Part shown: piece by piece, positions 50,845 to 55,290 of the stretch
How the letters are laid out: each line of letters begins with the position of its first letter
How positions within the stretch are numbered: position 1 is the first letter of the stretch
From: Streptomyces zhihengii
GTDB lineage: Bacteria > Actinomycetota > Actinomycetes > Streptomycetales > Streptomycetaceae
DNA: 64,000 nt
Reading direction: 5' to 3'
NCBI RefSeq assembly: GCF_016919245.1
Contig: NZ_JAFEJA010000002.1
Coordinates: 436,501-500,500 of the forward strand
Translations under genes and position numbers: made by a program
Notes under the pieces: generated by a model
Database searches by the model: none
What the model was told of the DNA's origin: nothing
The model's input: only the letters and a program-made list of their open reading frames with translations

Positions 50845-51606
50845 GTGTTGCTTCTCATCTCCCCGGACGGCGTCGAGGAGGCCCTCGACTGCGCGAAGGC
50901 GGCGGAGCACCTCGACATCGTCGACGTGAAGAAGCCCGACGAGGGCTCGCTCGGCGCCAACTTCCCCTGGGTCATCCGGGAGATCCGCGAAGCGGTACCG
51001 GCGGACACGCCCGTGTCCGCCACCGTGGGCGACGTGCCCTACAAGCCCGGCACGGTGGCCCAGGCCGCCCTCGGCGCGGCCGTCTCCGGCGCGACCTACA
51101 TCAAGGTCGGCCTCTACGGATGCACCACTCCCGAACAGGGCACCGAGGTCATGCGGGCCGTCGTCCGGGCGGTGAAGGACCACCGCACGGACGCGCTGGT
51201 CGTCGCCTCCGGCTACGCCGACGCCCACCGCGTCGGCTGCGTCAATCCGCTCGCCCTGCCCGACATCGCCGCCCGCGCCGGCGCCGACGCGGCCATGCTG
51301 GACACCGCGATCAAGGACGGCTCGCGGCTCTTCGACCACGTCCCGCCCGACGCCTGCGCCGAGTTCGTCCGCCGCGCCCACGCCCGAGGGCTGCTCGCCG
51401 CCCTCGCGGGCAGCGTCCGGCAGGCCGACCTCGGCCCGCTGACCCGCATCGGCACGGACATCGTGGGTGTGCGCGGAGCGGTCTGCGCCGGCGGTGACCG
51501 CAACGCCGGCAGGATCCAGCCGCATCTGATCGCGGCCTTCCGGGCGGAGATGGACCGGCAGGCCCGCGAGCACGCCGCCGCCGCCGACGTCACGGCCGTC
51601 AGCTGA
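50845..51606 (+). CDS. mfnB: MfnB-family (5-formylfuran-3-yl)methyl phosphate synthase
   Basis: 253 residues, TIM barrel. The N-terminus LISPDGVEEALDCA and the block DIVDVKKPDEGSLGANFPWV are near-diagnostic of MfnB, which condenses two glyceraldehyde-3-phosphates to 4-(hydroxymethyl)-2-furaldehyde phosphate. The Schiff-base Lys is expected in DVKKPDEGS and a second Lys in TYIKVGLYG. Outside methanogens this chemistry has no fixed pathway. GGAAGGAG lies six bases before the GTG. It starts an operon with aldehyde and alcohol dehydrogenases and a methyltransferase. Confidence 0.9.
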   Translation: MLLLISPDGVEEALDCAKAAEHLDIVDVKKPDEGSLGANFPWVIREIREAVPADTPVSATVGDVPYKPGTVAQAALGAAVSGATYIKVGLYGCTTPEQGTEVMRAVVRAVKDHRTDALVVASGYADAHRVGCVNPLALPDIAARAGADAAMLDTAIKDGSRLFDHVPPDACAEFVRRAHARGLLAALAGSVRQADLGPLTRIGTDIVGVRGAVCAGGDRNAGRIQPHLIAAFRAEMDRQAREHAAAADVTAVS

Positions 51607-51953
51607 CCACCGGGACGCCGGCACCGGAAGCCGGCCCCGTCGGCGACGACGACCGAACCGCCCGCCCCGTCGGCGACGACGACCGAACCACCTGCCCCGC
51701 CCCCGACGACGACCGAACCGCCTGCCCCGTCGGCGACGACGACCGAACCGCCCGCCCCGTCGCCGACGACGACCGAACCGCCCGCCCCGTCGCCCCGGAC
51801 CGCCATCGGACCGGGCGCCCCGCCGCCCCCGACGGCGACCGAAGCACCCGCCCGGCCTCGAACGACCGCCGTGCCGCGCGGCCCGCCTCGGACGACCGCC
51901 GTGCCGCTCGCCTCACCGTCGCCGACCCCGCCACCGGGGACACCGTCGGCGAG
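51603..51953 (+). other. open, coding-like frame joining mfnB to the aldehyde dehydrogenase
   Basis: The aldehyde dehydrogenase frame remains open upstream of its first GTG (51954) to a stop at 51495. It reads ADPATGDTVGEVPD directly before 51954, which is the usual ALDH N-terminal strand, so the enzyme is very likely translated from further upstream. No ATG, GTG or TTG exists in this frame between 51498 and 51954. The only near-start is a CTG (51603) overlapping the mfnB TGA. The frame is -1 relative to mfnB. Third positions here are about 90% G or C, as in real genes. Confidence 0.6.
51636..51785 (+). repeat. 30-bp tandem repeat encoding decapeptides
   Basis: Five near-identical 30-bp units start at 51636, 51666, 51696, 51726 and 51756; they contain GACGACGACCGAACC. 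Degenerate copies continue to about 51905. In the downstream ALDH frame they encode RPVGDDDRTA-like decapeptides that fade into RPASDDRRAA. The units are contiguous, without spacers, so this is not a CRISPR array. Confidence 0.9.
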
Positions 51954-53273: not shown

Positions 53274-54376
53274 AGTTCCGGGCCGCCGTGCTCCGTTCCC
53301 CCGACACCCCGTTCACGGTCGAGGAGGTCGTCCTGGGCGCCGGGCCCGCCCCGGGCGAGATCCTCGTCGAGATCGCCGGGTGCGGCATGTGCCGGACCGA
53401 TCTCGCCGTCCGGCGGTCCGCCGGCCGCACCCCGCTCCCGGCGGTCCTCGGCCACGAGGGCGCCGGAGTCGTCGTGGCATCGGGCGACGGCCCGGACGGC
53501 GCCGTCGCCGTCGGCGACCACGTCGTGCTCAGCTTCGACTCCTGCGGGCGGTGCCGGAACTGCCGCGGCGCGGCCCCCGCCCACTGCGACTCCTTCGCCT
53601 CCCTCAACCTCTTCGGAGGCCGCGACGAGCACCCGCGGCGCCTCACCGACGCCACCGGGGGAGCGCTGGCCCCCCGGTTCTTCGGCCAGTCCTCCTTCGC
53701 CGCCTACGCCCTCGTCACCGCGCGCAACGCCGTCCCGGTCGACCCCGCCCTGCCGCTCGAACTCCTCGGACCGCTCGGCTGCTCCGTCCTCACCGGCGCC
53801 GGAGCCGTGCTCAACACCTTCCGCGCCGGCCCCGGCGACACCCTCGCCGTACTCGGCGCCGGGGCGGTGGGCCTGGCCGCCGTGATGGCGGCCACCGCCG
53901 CCGGCGTCCGGACCGTCGCCGTCGACACCCGCCCCGCCCGACTGGAGCTGGCCGAACGGTTCGGCGCCGTCCCGCTGTCCGCGTCAAAAGCCGGACTCGC
54001 CGAGCGCATCCGCCGCCGCACCGACGGCGGCGCGCAGTACGCCCTGGACACCACGGCCTCCGCCCCGCTGATCAACGACGCGCTCCGCGCGCTGCGTCCC
54101 ACCGGGACCCTCGGTCTCGTGGCACGCCTGAACACCCCGCTGGCGCTCGAGGTGGGCACGCTCGACCGGGGCCGCGGCATCCGGCACATCTGCGAAGGGG
54201 ACGCCGTGCCCGGACTGCTGGTACCCCGGCTGATCGGCCTGTGGCGAGCCGGCCGTCTCCCCTTCGACGAACTGATCCGCACCTATCCGCTGGCCGACGT
54301 CAACGAGGCCGAACGCGACTGCGAAGCCGGACGCGTGGTCAAGCCCGTCCTGCTGCCGGAAAGAGGAGACCGATGA
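53270..54376 (+). CDS. zinc-dependent aryl-alcohol-type dehydrogenase
   Basis: 368 residues, medium-chain MDR family. The catalytic zinc ligand region is CGMCRTDLAV and GHEGAGVVV. The structural zinc Cys set is SCGRCRNCRGAAPAHC. The NAD-binding loop is VLGAGAVGLAAVMAA. The overall look is closest to benzyl/aryl-alcohol dehydrogenases, fitting a hydroxymethyl-furan substrate. Four-base overlaps on both sides place it in a tightly coupled operon with the ALDH and the methyltransferase. Confidence 0.9.
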   Translation: MKFRAAVLRSPDTPFTVEEVVLGAGPAPGEILVEIAGCGMCRTDLAVRRSAGRTPLPAVLGHEGAGVVVASGDGPDGAVAVGDHVVLSFDSCGRCRNCRGAAPAHCDSFASLNLFGGRDEHPRRLTDATGGALAPRFFGQSSFAAYALVTARNAVPVDPALPLELLGPLGCSVLTGAGAVLNTFRAGPGDTLAVLGAGAVGLAAVMAATAAGVRTVAVDTRPARLELAERFGAVPLSASKAGLAERIRRRTDGGAQYALDTTASAPLINDALRALRPTGTLGLVARLNTPLALEVGTLDRGRGIRHICEGDAVPGLLVPRLIGLWRAGRLPFDELIRTYPLADVNEAERDCEAGRVVKPVLLPERGDR

Positions 54377-55290
54377 GTGAAACGACCGCCACCCGCGACC
54401 CGCGACGCCCCGGCACGGACGGCGTGGAGGCGGGCGTGGGACTGACCGCCCTGCTGGTCGCCGCCGCGCGGGCGATCGAGACCCACCGCCACGACAGCCT
54501 CGCCCGCGACGCCTACGCCGAACACTTCGTGCGCGCGGCCGGGGCCTGCGCCGACTGGCCGGTGCGCATCGAGCAGGTGCCCGACGGCGACGCCGATCCG
54601 CTGTGGGGGCGGTTCGCCCGCTACTTCGGCCTGCGGACGCGCGTCCTCGACGACTTCCTCGTCCGCTCCCTCGGTGCCGGCGCCCGACAGGTGGTGCTGC
54701 TGGGAGCCGGCTTGGACACCCGGGCCTTCCGGCTGGACCTGCCGCCCGACTGCGTCGTCTTCGAGGTCGACCGGCCGGGTGTGCTCGACTTCAAGCAGCG
54801 GGTGCTCACCCGGCTCCCGGCCGCCCCGAAGGCGCGGCGCACCACCGTCCCCGTCGACCTGCGCGACGACTGGGTGACCGCCCTGACCGCGGCCGGCTTC
54901 GACCCGGCCGCCCCGAGCGTGTGGCTCGCCGAAGGGCTGCTCTTCTATCTGCCGGGCCCCGCCGAGACCTACCTCGTCGACACGGTGGACCGGCTCACCA
55001 CCCCGGGCAGCGCGCTGGTCTTCGAGGCCAAGCTGGAGAAGGACCTGCTGGCGTACCGCGACAGCCCGATCTACACGGCGACCCGGGAGCGGGTCGGCAT
55101 CGACCTGCTCGGCCTCTTCGACCCGGGGCCGCGCCCCGACTCCGCGGGCGACCTGCGGACCAGGGGCTGGTCGACCTCGACGCACACGCCCTTCGACTTC
55201 ACCCGCCGGCTGGGGCGCGGCCCCCTCCCCGAGCCGAACGACGCGCTGGAGGGGAACCGCTGGGTCTTCGCGCACAAGCTCCGGCCCTGA
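54373..55290 (+). CDS. class I SAM methyltransferase (leucine-carboxyl-methyltransferase-like)
   Basis: 305 residues. The SAM-binding loop VVLLGAGLDTRAFRL and the FEVDRPGVLDFKQ motif identify the PPM1/LCMT-like family common in actinobacteria. LAEGLLFYLPGPA follows, as usual. These enzymes often methylate carboxylates or hydroxyls in natural-product pathways. As last gene of the mfnB operon it could esterify or O-methylate a furan acid. It starts within the ADH stop (ATGA). A hairpin follows at 55309. Confidence 0.9.
   Translation: MSETTATRDPRRPGTDGVEAGVGLTALLVAAARAIETHRHDSLARDAYAEHFVRAAGACADWPVRIEQVPDGDADPLWGRFARYFGLRTRVLDDFLVRSLGAGARQVVLLGAGLDTRAFRLDLPPDCVVFEVDRPGVLDFKQRVLTRLPAAPKARRTTVPVDLRDDWVTALTAAGFDPAAPSVWLAEGLLFYLPGPAETYLVDTVDRLTTPGSALVFEAKLEKDLLAYRDSPIYTATRERVGIDLLGLFDPGPRPDSAGDLRTRGWSTSTHTPFDFTRRLGRGPLPEPNDALEGNRWVFAHKLRP

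What the first reader, a model, noticed from the sequence alone, without database searches (positions are those of the whole stretch)
50845..55290. Candidate undescribed furan biosynthetic operon built on an MfnB homologue
MfnB makes the furan core of methanofuran in methanogens. Here it is followed by an aldehyde dehydrogenase, an aryl-alcohol-type dehydrogenase and a carboxyl-type methyltransferase, linked by ATGA overlaps. The rest of methanofuran synthesis (MfnA, C, D, E, F) is absent. A hydroxymethyl-furoic acid or its methyl ester is a plausible product, perhaps a signal or a building block.
Basis: partly seen in the sequence, partly recalled or inferred. Interest (0 to 1): 0.75.

Follow-up and report, generated by a model that had tools for sequence, protein, structure and literature searches.

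The report
Mobile furan-making gene cassette in Streptomyces
A Streptomyces chromosome carries a small, self-contained gene set headed by an enzyme of the type methane-producing archaea use to build a furan ring; it travels as a unit between strains and probably makes a small furan acid or its methyl ester that has not been identified.

Summary
The finding holds up. The first gene encodes an MfnB-type enzyme: 60% identical to Methanocaldococcus jannaschii MJ1099, over its NCBIfam cut-off, with Asp25, Lys27, Lys85, Asp151 and Lys155 kept in 84 of 84 copies compared. Behind it lie an aldehyde dehydrogenase (ALDH), a zinc alcohol dehydrogenase and a leucine-carboxyl-type methyltransferase. In 295 genomes of the genus, 70 have strong mfnB; the cassette methyltransferase (>=71% identity) occurs in exactly those 70, the alcohol dehydrogenase in 68 at the threshold used, neither in the other 225. 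Flanking DNA differs between loci and plasmid copies exist, so it moves as a unit. Two methanofuran markers (Ftr, MfnF) are absent from the genome. New here: an EF-hand gene is a looser fifth partner, and with more distant methyltransferase homologues forms a separate module without mfnB; ALDH is decaying in places (lost in five loci at different breakpoints; in the window its usual ATG reads ACG and a 30-bp repeat lengthens its start). Best reading: biosynthesis of a 2,4-substituted furan carboxylate or its methyl ester. Product, phosphatase and biological role are inferred, not shown.

The parts
50730..50844 (+). 5' block conserved with the cassette (presumed promoter/operator and ribosome-binding site AAGGAG), although the DNA further upstream differs between most loci
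   Evidence: 32 of 81 available rows aligned: 21 invariant columns, 13 of them before the start codon; no convincing RNA fold, no Rfam match, no sigma-70 match
50845..51606 (+). mfnB: (5-formylfuran-3-yl)methyl phosphate (4-HFC-P) synthase, GTG start, 253 aa
51615..53273 (+). aldehyde dehydrogenase (PF00171); reading frame open from CTG 51603; the codon where relatives have their ATG is ACG at 51615-51617; first ATG/GTG/TTG in frame is GTG 51954
51630..51792 (+). 30-bp tandem repeat, 5.4 copies, in frame with ALDH, in its N-terminal linker; not a cassette feature (mfnB-ALDH interval 348 nt here, 79-206 in the 77 relatives measured)
53270..54376 (+). zinc-dependent alcohol dehydrogenase; ATGA overlap with ALDH; second-best solved relative is benzyl alcohol dehydrogenase 1F8F
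54373..55290 (+). SAM-dependent methyltransferase, leucine-carboxyl-methyltransferase family (PF04072/TIGR00027); ATGA overlap with ADH
55358..55894 (-). EF-hand (calcium-binding) protein, convergent with MT; fifth, looser member of the cassette
   Evidence: (49 of 83 loci within 6.5 kb)

Best explanation
A mobile biosynthetic cassette. MfnB condenses two glyceraldehyde-3-phosphates to 4-(hydroxymethyl)furfural phosphate (shown for the archaeal enzyme; inferred here from active site and fold). A phosphatase outside the cassette removes the phosphate (inferred; none is linked). ALDH and ADH then set the oxidation state of the two side arms: the C2 aldehyde to a carboxylate and the C4 hydroxymethyl to an aldehyde (inferred from family). 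The methyltransferase esterifies a carboxylate (inferred from family), giving a 2,4-disubstituted furan acid methyl ester, for example methyl 4-(hydroxymethyl)furan-2-carboxylate or a more oxidised relative. The EF-hand protein is a calcium-binding partner or regulator of the methyltransferase step (inferred from repeated linkage). In the window strain ALDH is probably weakly translated or truncated, so another aldehyde dehydrogenase may stand in.
For: MfnB: 60% identity to MJ1099, D25/K27/K85/D151/K155 in 84 of 84 rows, model fits six MJ1099 chains with TM (by target) 0.92-0.95, NF002573 over cut-off. Linkage: MT >=71% in exactly the 70 mfnB-positive of 295 genomes; ADH at E<=1e-100 in 68 of 70 and 0 of 225. 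Distances of mfnB, ALDH, ADH and MT correlate (Mantel rho 0.78-0.89; 0 of 499 permutations as high), while the DNA 0.3-3.5 kb upstream falls into 58 groups for 77 loci. Catalytic residues: ALDH Cys/Glu/Asn 78 of 78, ADH zinc ligands 82 of 82, MT glycine motif 81 of 81 rows aligned (which residues are catalytic is recalled). ADH: benzyl alcohol dehydrogenase 1F8F is the second-best solved relative, after 5TNX, which bears only a generic name. Own genome without Ftr and MfnF, whereas the MfnB of G561 lies among fhc-like and MfnF-like genes.
Against: No product is known. ALDH is deleted or reduced in 5 of 82 loci where it could be judged (L006, L009, L051, L075, L080; different breakpoints, no N runs; L076 ends before it) while mfnB and MT stay, and ADH stays whole in four of the five, so oxidation by this ALDH is not needed everywhere. 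No phosphatase is linked. The methyltransferase family has many members of unknown substrate; carboxyl methylation is an inference. MT lies on the opposite strand in 6 of 81 loci, so it is not always co-transcribed. In G224 the ADH and other genes are in pieces, and in G119 no ADH was found (mfnB and MT on different contigs).
Confidence: 0.6

Rival explanations
1. The furan is made, but the end product is an alcohol or aldehyde, not a carboxylate: ADH works as a reductase giving 2,4-bis(hydroxymethyl)furan or acts on the formyl group, and the methyltransferase acts on another acceptor.
For: ALDH is the least conserved enzyme of the four: five losses with different breakpoints and a lost ATG in the window, while the matched pieces of ADH and MT in the named loci hold no stop codon.
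Against: ALDH has full length in 77 of 82 assessable loci, keeps its catalytic residues in all 78 rows aligned and follows MfnB directly; the MT family is named for carboxyl methylation.
Confidence: 0.17
2. The Streptomyces MfnB clade has changed its reaction: it is a class I aldolase-like enzyme making a different small sugar-derived product, and the operon is not a furan pathway.
For: The clade is separate from both methanogen and methylofuran-type enzymes (97/99 support) and has clade-specific changes, such as a two-residue insertion before the Lys27 strand and Val for Ala211.
Against: The residues named as catalytic are kept, identity to a characterised enzyme is 60%, and I recall no other activity for the family.
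Confidence: 0.12
3. The cassette makes a furan coenzyme of the methanofuran/methylofuran kind.
For: MfnB is an early enzyme of that pathway; of two other actinobacterial MfnBs found one, G561, lies among fhc-like, MfnF-like and kinase genes, and the other, G336, beside a kinase gene near a contig end (read by eye; two G561 families confirmed).
Against: Ftr and MfnF absent from the own genome; no transaminase, kinase or ligase among the cassette proteins scanned; the enzymes present oxidise and methylate.
Confidence: 0.03
4. MT and EF-hand form an independent module (for example carboxyl methylation of a protein or metabolite under calcium control) that merely sits beside a furan pathway of mfnB, ALDH and ADH.
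For: Of 19 sites of more distant MT homologues (50-68% identity), 15 have an EF-hand gene within 4 kb, none with mfnB beside them; of 12 such loci read, 6 have an isocitrate-dehydrogenase-like and an isochorismatase-like gene between the two, 1 only the latter, 5 neither.
Against: The cassette MT clade (>=71%) occurs only with mfnB, in 70 of 70, and its divergence tracks ADH and ALDH (rho 0.87 and 0.89).
Confidence: 0.08

Closest known systems
MfnB (4-HFC-P synthase, MJ1099) of methanogen methanofuran biosynthesis
   Same: sequence (60%), fold, the named catalytic residues, NCBIfam equivalog
   Different: separate clade; no transaminase, kinase, ligase or formylmethanofuran enzymes in the cassette; followed by dehydrogenases and a methyltransferase
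Methylofuran gene clusters of methylotrophic bacteria (Orf22/MfnB with MfnE, MfnF and fhc; PMC8141765, passages)
   Same: same furan-forming enzyme
   Different: the three methylofuran-type MfnBs compared are 40-46% identical to this one; that of Azospirillum lies near annotated fhc genes, that of G561 near fhc-like genes (by eye)
Methylenomycin furans (MmfL/MmfH/MmfP) of Streptomyces coelicolor (PMC6604932, passages)
   Same: small hydroxymethyl-furan carboxylic acids in Streptomyces; phosphatase proposed
   Different: [quoted passage not shown] no cassette protein matches such an enzyme
Benzyl-alcohol dehydrogenase type ADH paired with an aldehyde dehydrogenase (pairing recalled; ADH relative 1F8F)
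   Same: ADH family and ADH plus ALDH pair
   Different: those serve aromatic catabolism (recalled); here the pair follows a ring-making enzyme

Membership tests
MfnB / 4-HFC-P synthase | family profile above curated cut-off | tested here: met
   PF04476 267.1 vs 22.4 bits; NF002573 392.7 vs 341
MfnB / 4-HFC-P synthase | Schiff-base Lys27 and partner residues Lys85, Asp25, Asp151, Lys155 | tested here: met
   84 of 84 rows; [quoted passage not shown] the numbers of the other residues are recalled
MfnB / 4-HFC-P synthase | TIM-barrel fold of 4RC1 | tested here: met
   model pLDDT 89, TM (by target) 0.92-0.95 to chains of 4RC1 and 4U9P
[quoted passage not shown]
   needs an enzyme assay
methanofuran/methylofuran biosynthesis and use | Ftr and MfnF/Orf9 in the genome | tested here: not met
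   0 of 1 each; two methanogen controls rang in each
methanofuran/methylofuran biosynthesis and use | MfnA, MfnC, MfnD, MfnE | not tested
   none is among the cassette proteins; not searched genome-wide
methylenomycin-furan type pathway | MmfL-type ring-building enzyme in the cluster | tested here: not met
   none of the six proteins is of that kind; the rest of the genome was not searched
leucine carboxyl methyltransferase family (PF04072) | profile match and SAM motif | tested here: met
   190.4 bits vs 22.3; glycine motif 81 of 81
leucine carboxyl methyltransferase family (PF04072) | methylates a carboxylate | not testable with these tools
   substrate unknown; the two solved relatives, Rv0731c and ML2640, are named putative methyltransferases

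The most novel reading that the evidence does not exclude
Streptomyces and near relatives share, by horizontal transfer, a calcium-linked cassette for a new class of small, possibly volatile 2,4-disubstituted furan methyl esters built by an archaeal-type MfnB. To my knowledge it would be the first use of MfnB outside C1-carrier coenzymes, and the methyltransferase/EF-hand pair would be an exchangeable finishing module also attached to a different (isocitrate-dehydrogenase-like plus isochorismatase-like) acid-making pathway.
Probability: 0.35. Interest if true: 0.8.

Novelty: new variant of a known kind. Interest (0 to 1): 0.62.

Why it matters
MfnB is known as an entry enzyme of methanofuran and methylofuran. 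A widespread, mobile Streptomyces cassette that puts the same furan-forming step to another use points to an unrecognised metabolite in about a quarter (70 of 295) of the sampled genomes of a heavily mined genus, and the question is directly testable with one enzyme assay and one deletion. It also bears on annotation: the gene bears the name of the methanofuran enzyme in an organism that lacks two of that system's markers. The methyltransferase/EF-hand module offers a second, independent handle on what the final step does.

Tried and rejected
Led nowhere: Rfam on 49300-56300 (no match up to E 0.1); consensus fold of the 5' leader (energy -7.88, covariation term -0.08, 3 of 19 pairs with any two-sided change; read as DNA-level conservation, not an RNA element); sigma-70 promoter scan (none); literature for an identified product. 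Ten paper searches were answered: (one search was rejected for a badly formed term and reworded; one search listed 40 of 62 papers, so 22 were not seen). None of the listed papers was seen to report the product of a Streptomyces mfnB; the one Streptomyces mfnB found is SCO6440, named mfnB among up-regulated genes in an AbrB1/B2 study (PMC7581861, passages). That SCO6441-6443 are its cassette partners is recalled, not looked up. Papers seen as passages only: PMC7581861, PMC6604932, PMC9088363, PMC8141765, PMC11365854, PMC10364804 (about another family, DUF5565), PMC6328858 (a reference-list hit only), PMC9966152.

Considered and rejected: methylofuran coenzyme; the upstream metallophosphoesterase 49406-50617 as the missing phosphatase (a relative of it lies within the stretches held in only 2 of 80 loci, L002 and L069, 5-9 kb downstream of mfnB); a leader peptide in the 5' block (the short frame of the window, ending at a stop, is not kept in the rows seen); selenocysteine genes as part of the system (selA and selB matched in 0 of 80 relatives' stretches).

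Results checked because they could speak against the reading: one search flagged one stop codon in 13 of 68 ADH matches and in 2 MT matches; five of the 13 and both MT genomes were fetched and the matched regions hold no internal stop, so the flag seems to be the gene's own end; the other eight were not read. In G082 the ALDH matches in two pieces, and in G224 ALDH, ADH, MT and EF-hand match in pieces, unlike the rest; whether this is decay or sequencing error is open. In some searches the tool scored only the best few first-look candidates per genome (for ADH 6), so absence means absence of a close copy.

Rows dropped before counts: three weak PF04476 matches (G080, G108, G228; E about 1e-7, partial) were not counted as mfnB, hence 70 and not 73; second fragments in G094 and G224 were ignored. 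Of 15 MT/EF-hand sites without mfnB beside them 12 were read (G102, G181, G271 not fetched); several of the 12 are near relatives of each other (L127 and L133, L131 and L135, L134 and L136 share flanking genes). One search kept the best 80 of 228 loci, so more distant cassettes were not read.
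Full report
OBSERVATION. The window lies in a 9.73-Mb genome, by its relatives a Streptomyces. The four ORFs exist as described. Pfam and NCBIfam give 4-HFC-P synthase, aldehyde dehydrogenase, zinc alcohol dehydrogenase and leucine-carboxyl methyltransferase. ALDH-ADH and ADH-MT overlap by ATGA; mfnB-ALDH does not.

IS IT A WORKING MfnB? The protein is 60.3% identical to MJ1099 over 229 columns, about 46% to two actinobacterial MfnBs (G561, G336) and 40% to that of Azospirillum. D25, K27, K85, D151 and K155 are invariant in all 84 Streptomyces/Kitasatospora rows (window, 80 genome loci, 3 plasmid loci) and in those outgroups. AlphaFold2 gives mean pLDDT 89 and the model's six best PDB hits are chains of 4RC1/4U9P (TM by target 0.92-0.95, rmsd 1.6-2.0). 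In a 28-row tree the Streptomyces-type rows form one clade (97/99) that joins the methanogen MfnBs (90/96) apart from the three methylofuran-type bacterial rows; treekit warned that long branches meet, so the archaeal affinity is likely, not proven.

THE CASSETTE. Eighty genome loci (best 80 of 228 candidates) and three plasmid loci were compared: mfnB full length in 83 of 83; ALDH in 77, partial in 4, absent in 2 (one of these a contig end); ADH in 81, partial in 1, absent in 1 (contig end); MT in 80, partial in 1, absent in 2 (both contig ends). No stop codon lies in the best matched piece of any of these. ALDH-ADH spacing is 2 nt in 50 and ATGA in 16 of 77; an ATGA start for MT is available in 48 of 67. 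The DNA 0.3-3.5 kb upstream is shared by few: 77 loci (window included) fall into 58 groups, the largest of 7. Beside the cassette and the EF-hand gene no gene cluster recurs in more than 8 of 81 loci (home-made ORF calling, which found mfnB itself in only 66). mfnB is on 13 Streptomyces/Streptantibioticus plasmid records of 24 matched, some of one species; the three read carry the whole cassette, one beside Tn3 transposase genes. A 5' block of about 115 bp travels with it.

CO-OCCURRENCE. In the same 295 genomes of the genus (own included), strong mfnB occurs in 70 (73 with any match, less three weak ones). MT at >=71% identity occurs in exactly these 70; ADH at E<=1e-100 in 68 of them; neither in any of the other 225. 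Of the two without ADH, G224 has it in pieces and G119 has mfnB and MT on different contigs. Fisher tests are extreme, but the genomes are related, so the absence of exceptions matters more than the p value. Distances of the four genes correlate (rho 0.78-0.89); common descent alone can give part of that.

NOT METHANOFURAN, AS FAR AS TESTED. The own genome has no Ftr and no MfnF/Orf9. Of 396 genomes of the phylum, 6 had any match: own, two more of the genus, one below cut-off (G668), and G561 and G336. G561's MfnB lies among fhc-like, Ftr-like, MfnF-like and kinase genes; G336's lies beside a kinase gene near a contig end, so its wider context is unseen (by eye; for G561 Hydantoinase_A and AA_kinase confirmed).

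A FIFTH PARTNER AND A SECOND MODULE. An EF-hand gene lies within 6.5 kb of mfnB in 49 of 83 loci (down to 45% identity) and in 28 of 70 genomes at E<=1e-40. More distant MT homologues (50-68%) occur at 19 sites, 15 of them with an EF-hand gene within 4 kb, in 14 genomes without mfnB and, away from its mfnB, in G121. Twelve were read: six carry an isocitrate/isopropylmalate-dehydrogenase-like and an isochorismatase-like gene between EF-hand and MT, one only the latter, five neither; neither gene occurs in the 83 mfnB loci. So MT plus EF-hand looks like a unit coupled to different front ends.

DECAY OF ALDH. Five loci lost most or all of ALDH with different breakpoints and no N runs. In the window the codon aligned with the relatives' ATG is ACG, the interval has grown to 348 nt (79-206 in 77 relatives, 98 in 50 of them) by an in-frame 30-bp repeat, and the next start, GTG 51954, would leave out the first 23 positions of the Pfam profile. 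A CTG overlapping the mfnB stop is kept in 64 of 77 relatives and in the window and might serve as a start. A sequencing error cannot be excluded.

MECHANISM. Known (archaeal enzyme, PMC6604932 passages): two glyceraldehyde-3-phosphate to 4-HFC-P in one active site. Inferred: dephosphorylation by an unlinked enzyme, oxidation by ALDH and ADH (solved relatives of ADH: 5TNX, then benzyl alcohol dehydrogenase 1F8F), esterification by MT. The product class is therefore a 2,4-disubstituted furan carboxylate or methyl ester. The review PMC9966152 (passages) lists natural C6 furans of the 2,5 series, some from Streptomyces, and names methyl 5-methyl-2-furancarboxylate as a volatile of Saccharopolyspora erythraea and S. 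griseoflavus; a genome named Streptomyces griseoflavus has the cassette (L018). That ring pattern is not the one MfnB makes, so this is precedent for the kind of compound, not evidence for the product.

VERDICT. A real, coherent use of MfnB for which the library searched shows no description (ten searches, open-access papers only). New variant of a known kind; product open.

Noticed in passing
window 45085-49446: A selenocysteine set: tRNA-SeC at 46185-46278 with selD (-), selA and selB (+) by eye, ending about 1.4 kb before mfnB. Not linked to mfnB in the relatives' stretches.
   Followed up: partly
L125, L127, L132, L133, L134, L136: A gene order not met in the searches made: EF-hand, divergent isocitrate-dehydrogenase-like (PF00180, 57 bits in L127), isochorismatase-like, leucine-carboxyl-type methyltransferase, in mfnB-negative genomes of the genus.
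   Followed up: partly
window 51630-51917: 30-bp in-frame tandem repeats in the ALDH N-terminal linker (DDDRTARPVG-like decapeptides) together with loss of the usual ATG.
   Followed up: partly
window 56173-62075: A second metallophosphoesterase-like ORF (56173-57072 +) and two large ORFs that look like LuxR-type regulators with an ATPase-like part (56370-58934 +, 59127-62075 -) downstream of the cassette; read by eye, no family search.
   Followed up: no
L118 (plasmid NZ_CP108584.1): Cassette near three Tn3-family transposase pieces, with its EF-hand gene upstream of and divergent from mfnB: a possible vehicle of transfer.
   Followed up: no
L142 (G224) and L144 (G082): Cassette genes that match in several pieces (G224: ALDH, ADH, MT, EF-hand; G082: ALDH), as if frameshifted.
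   Followed up: no
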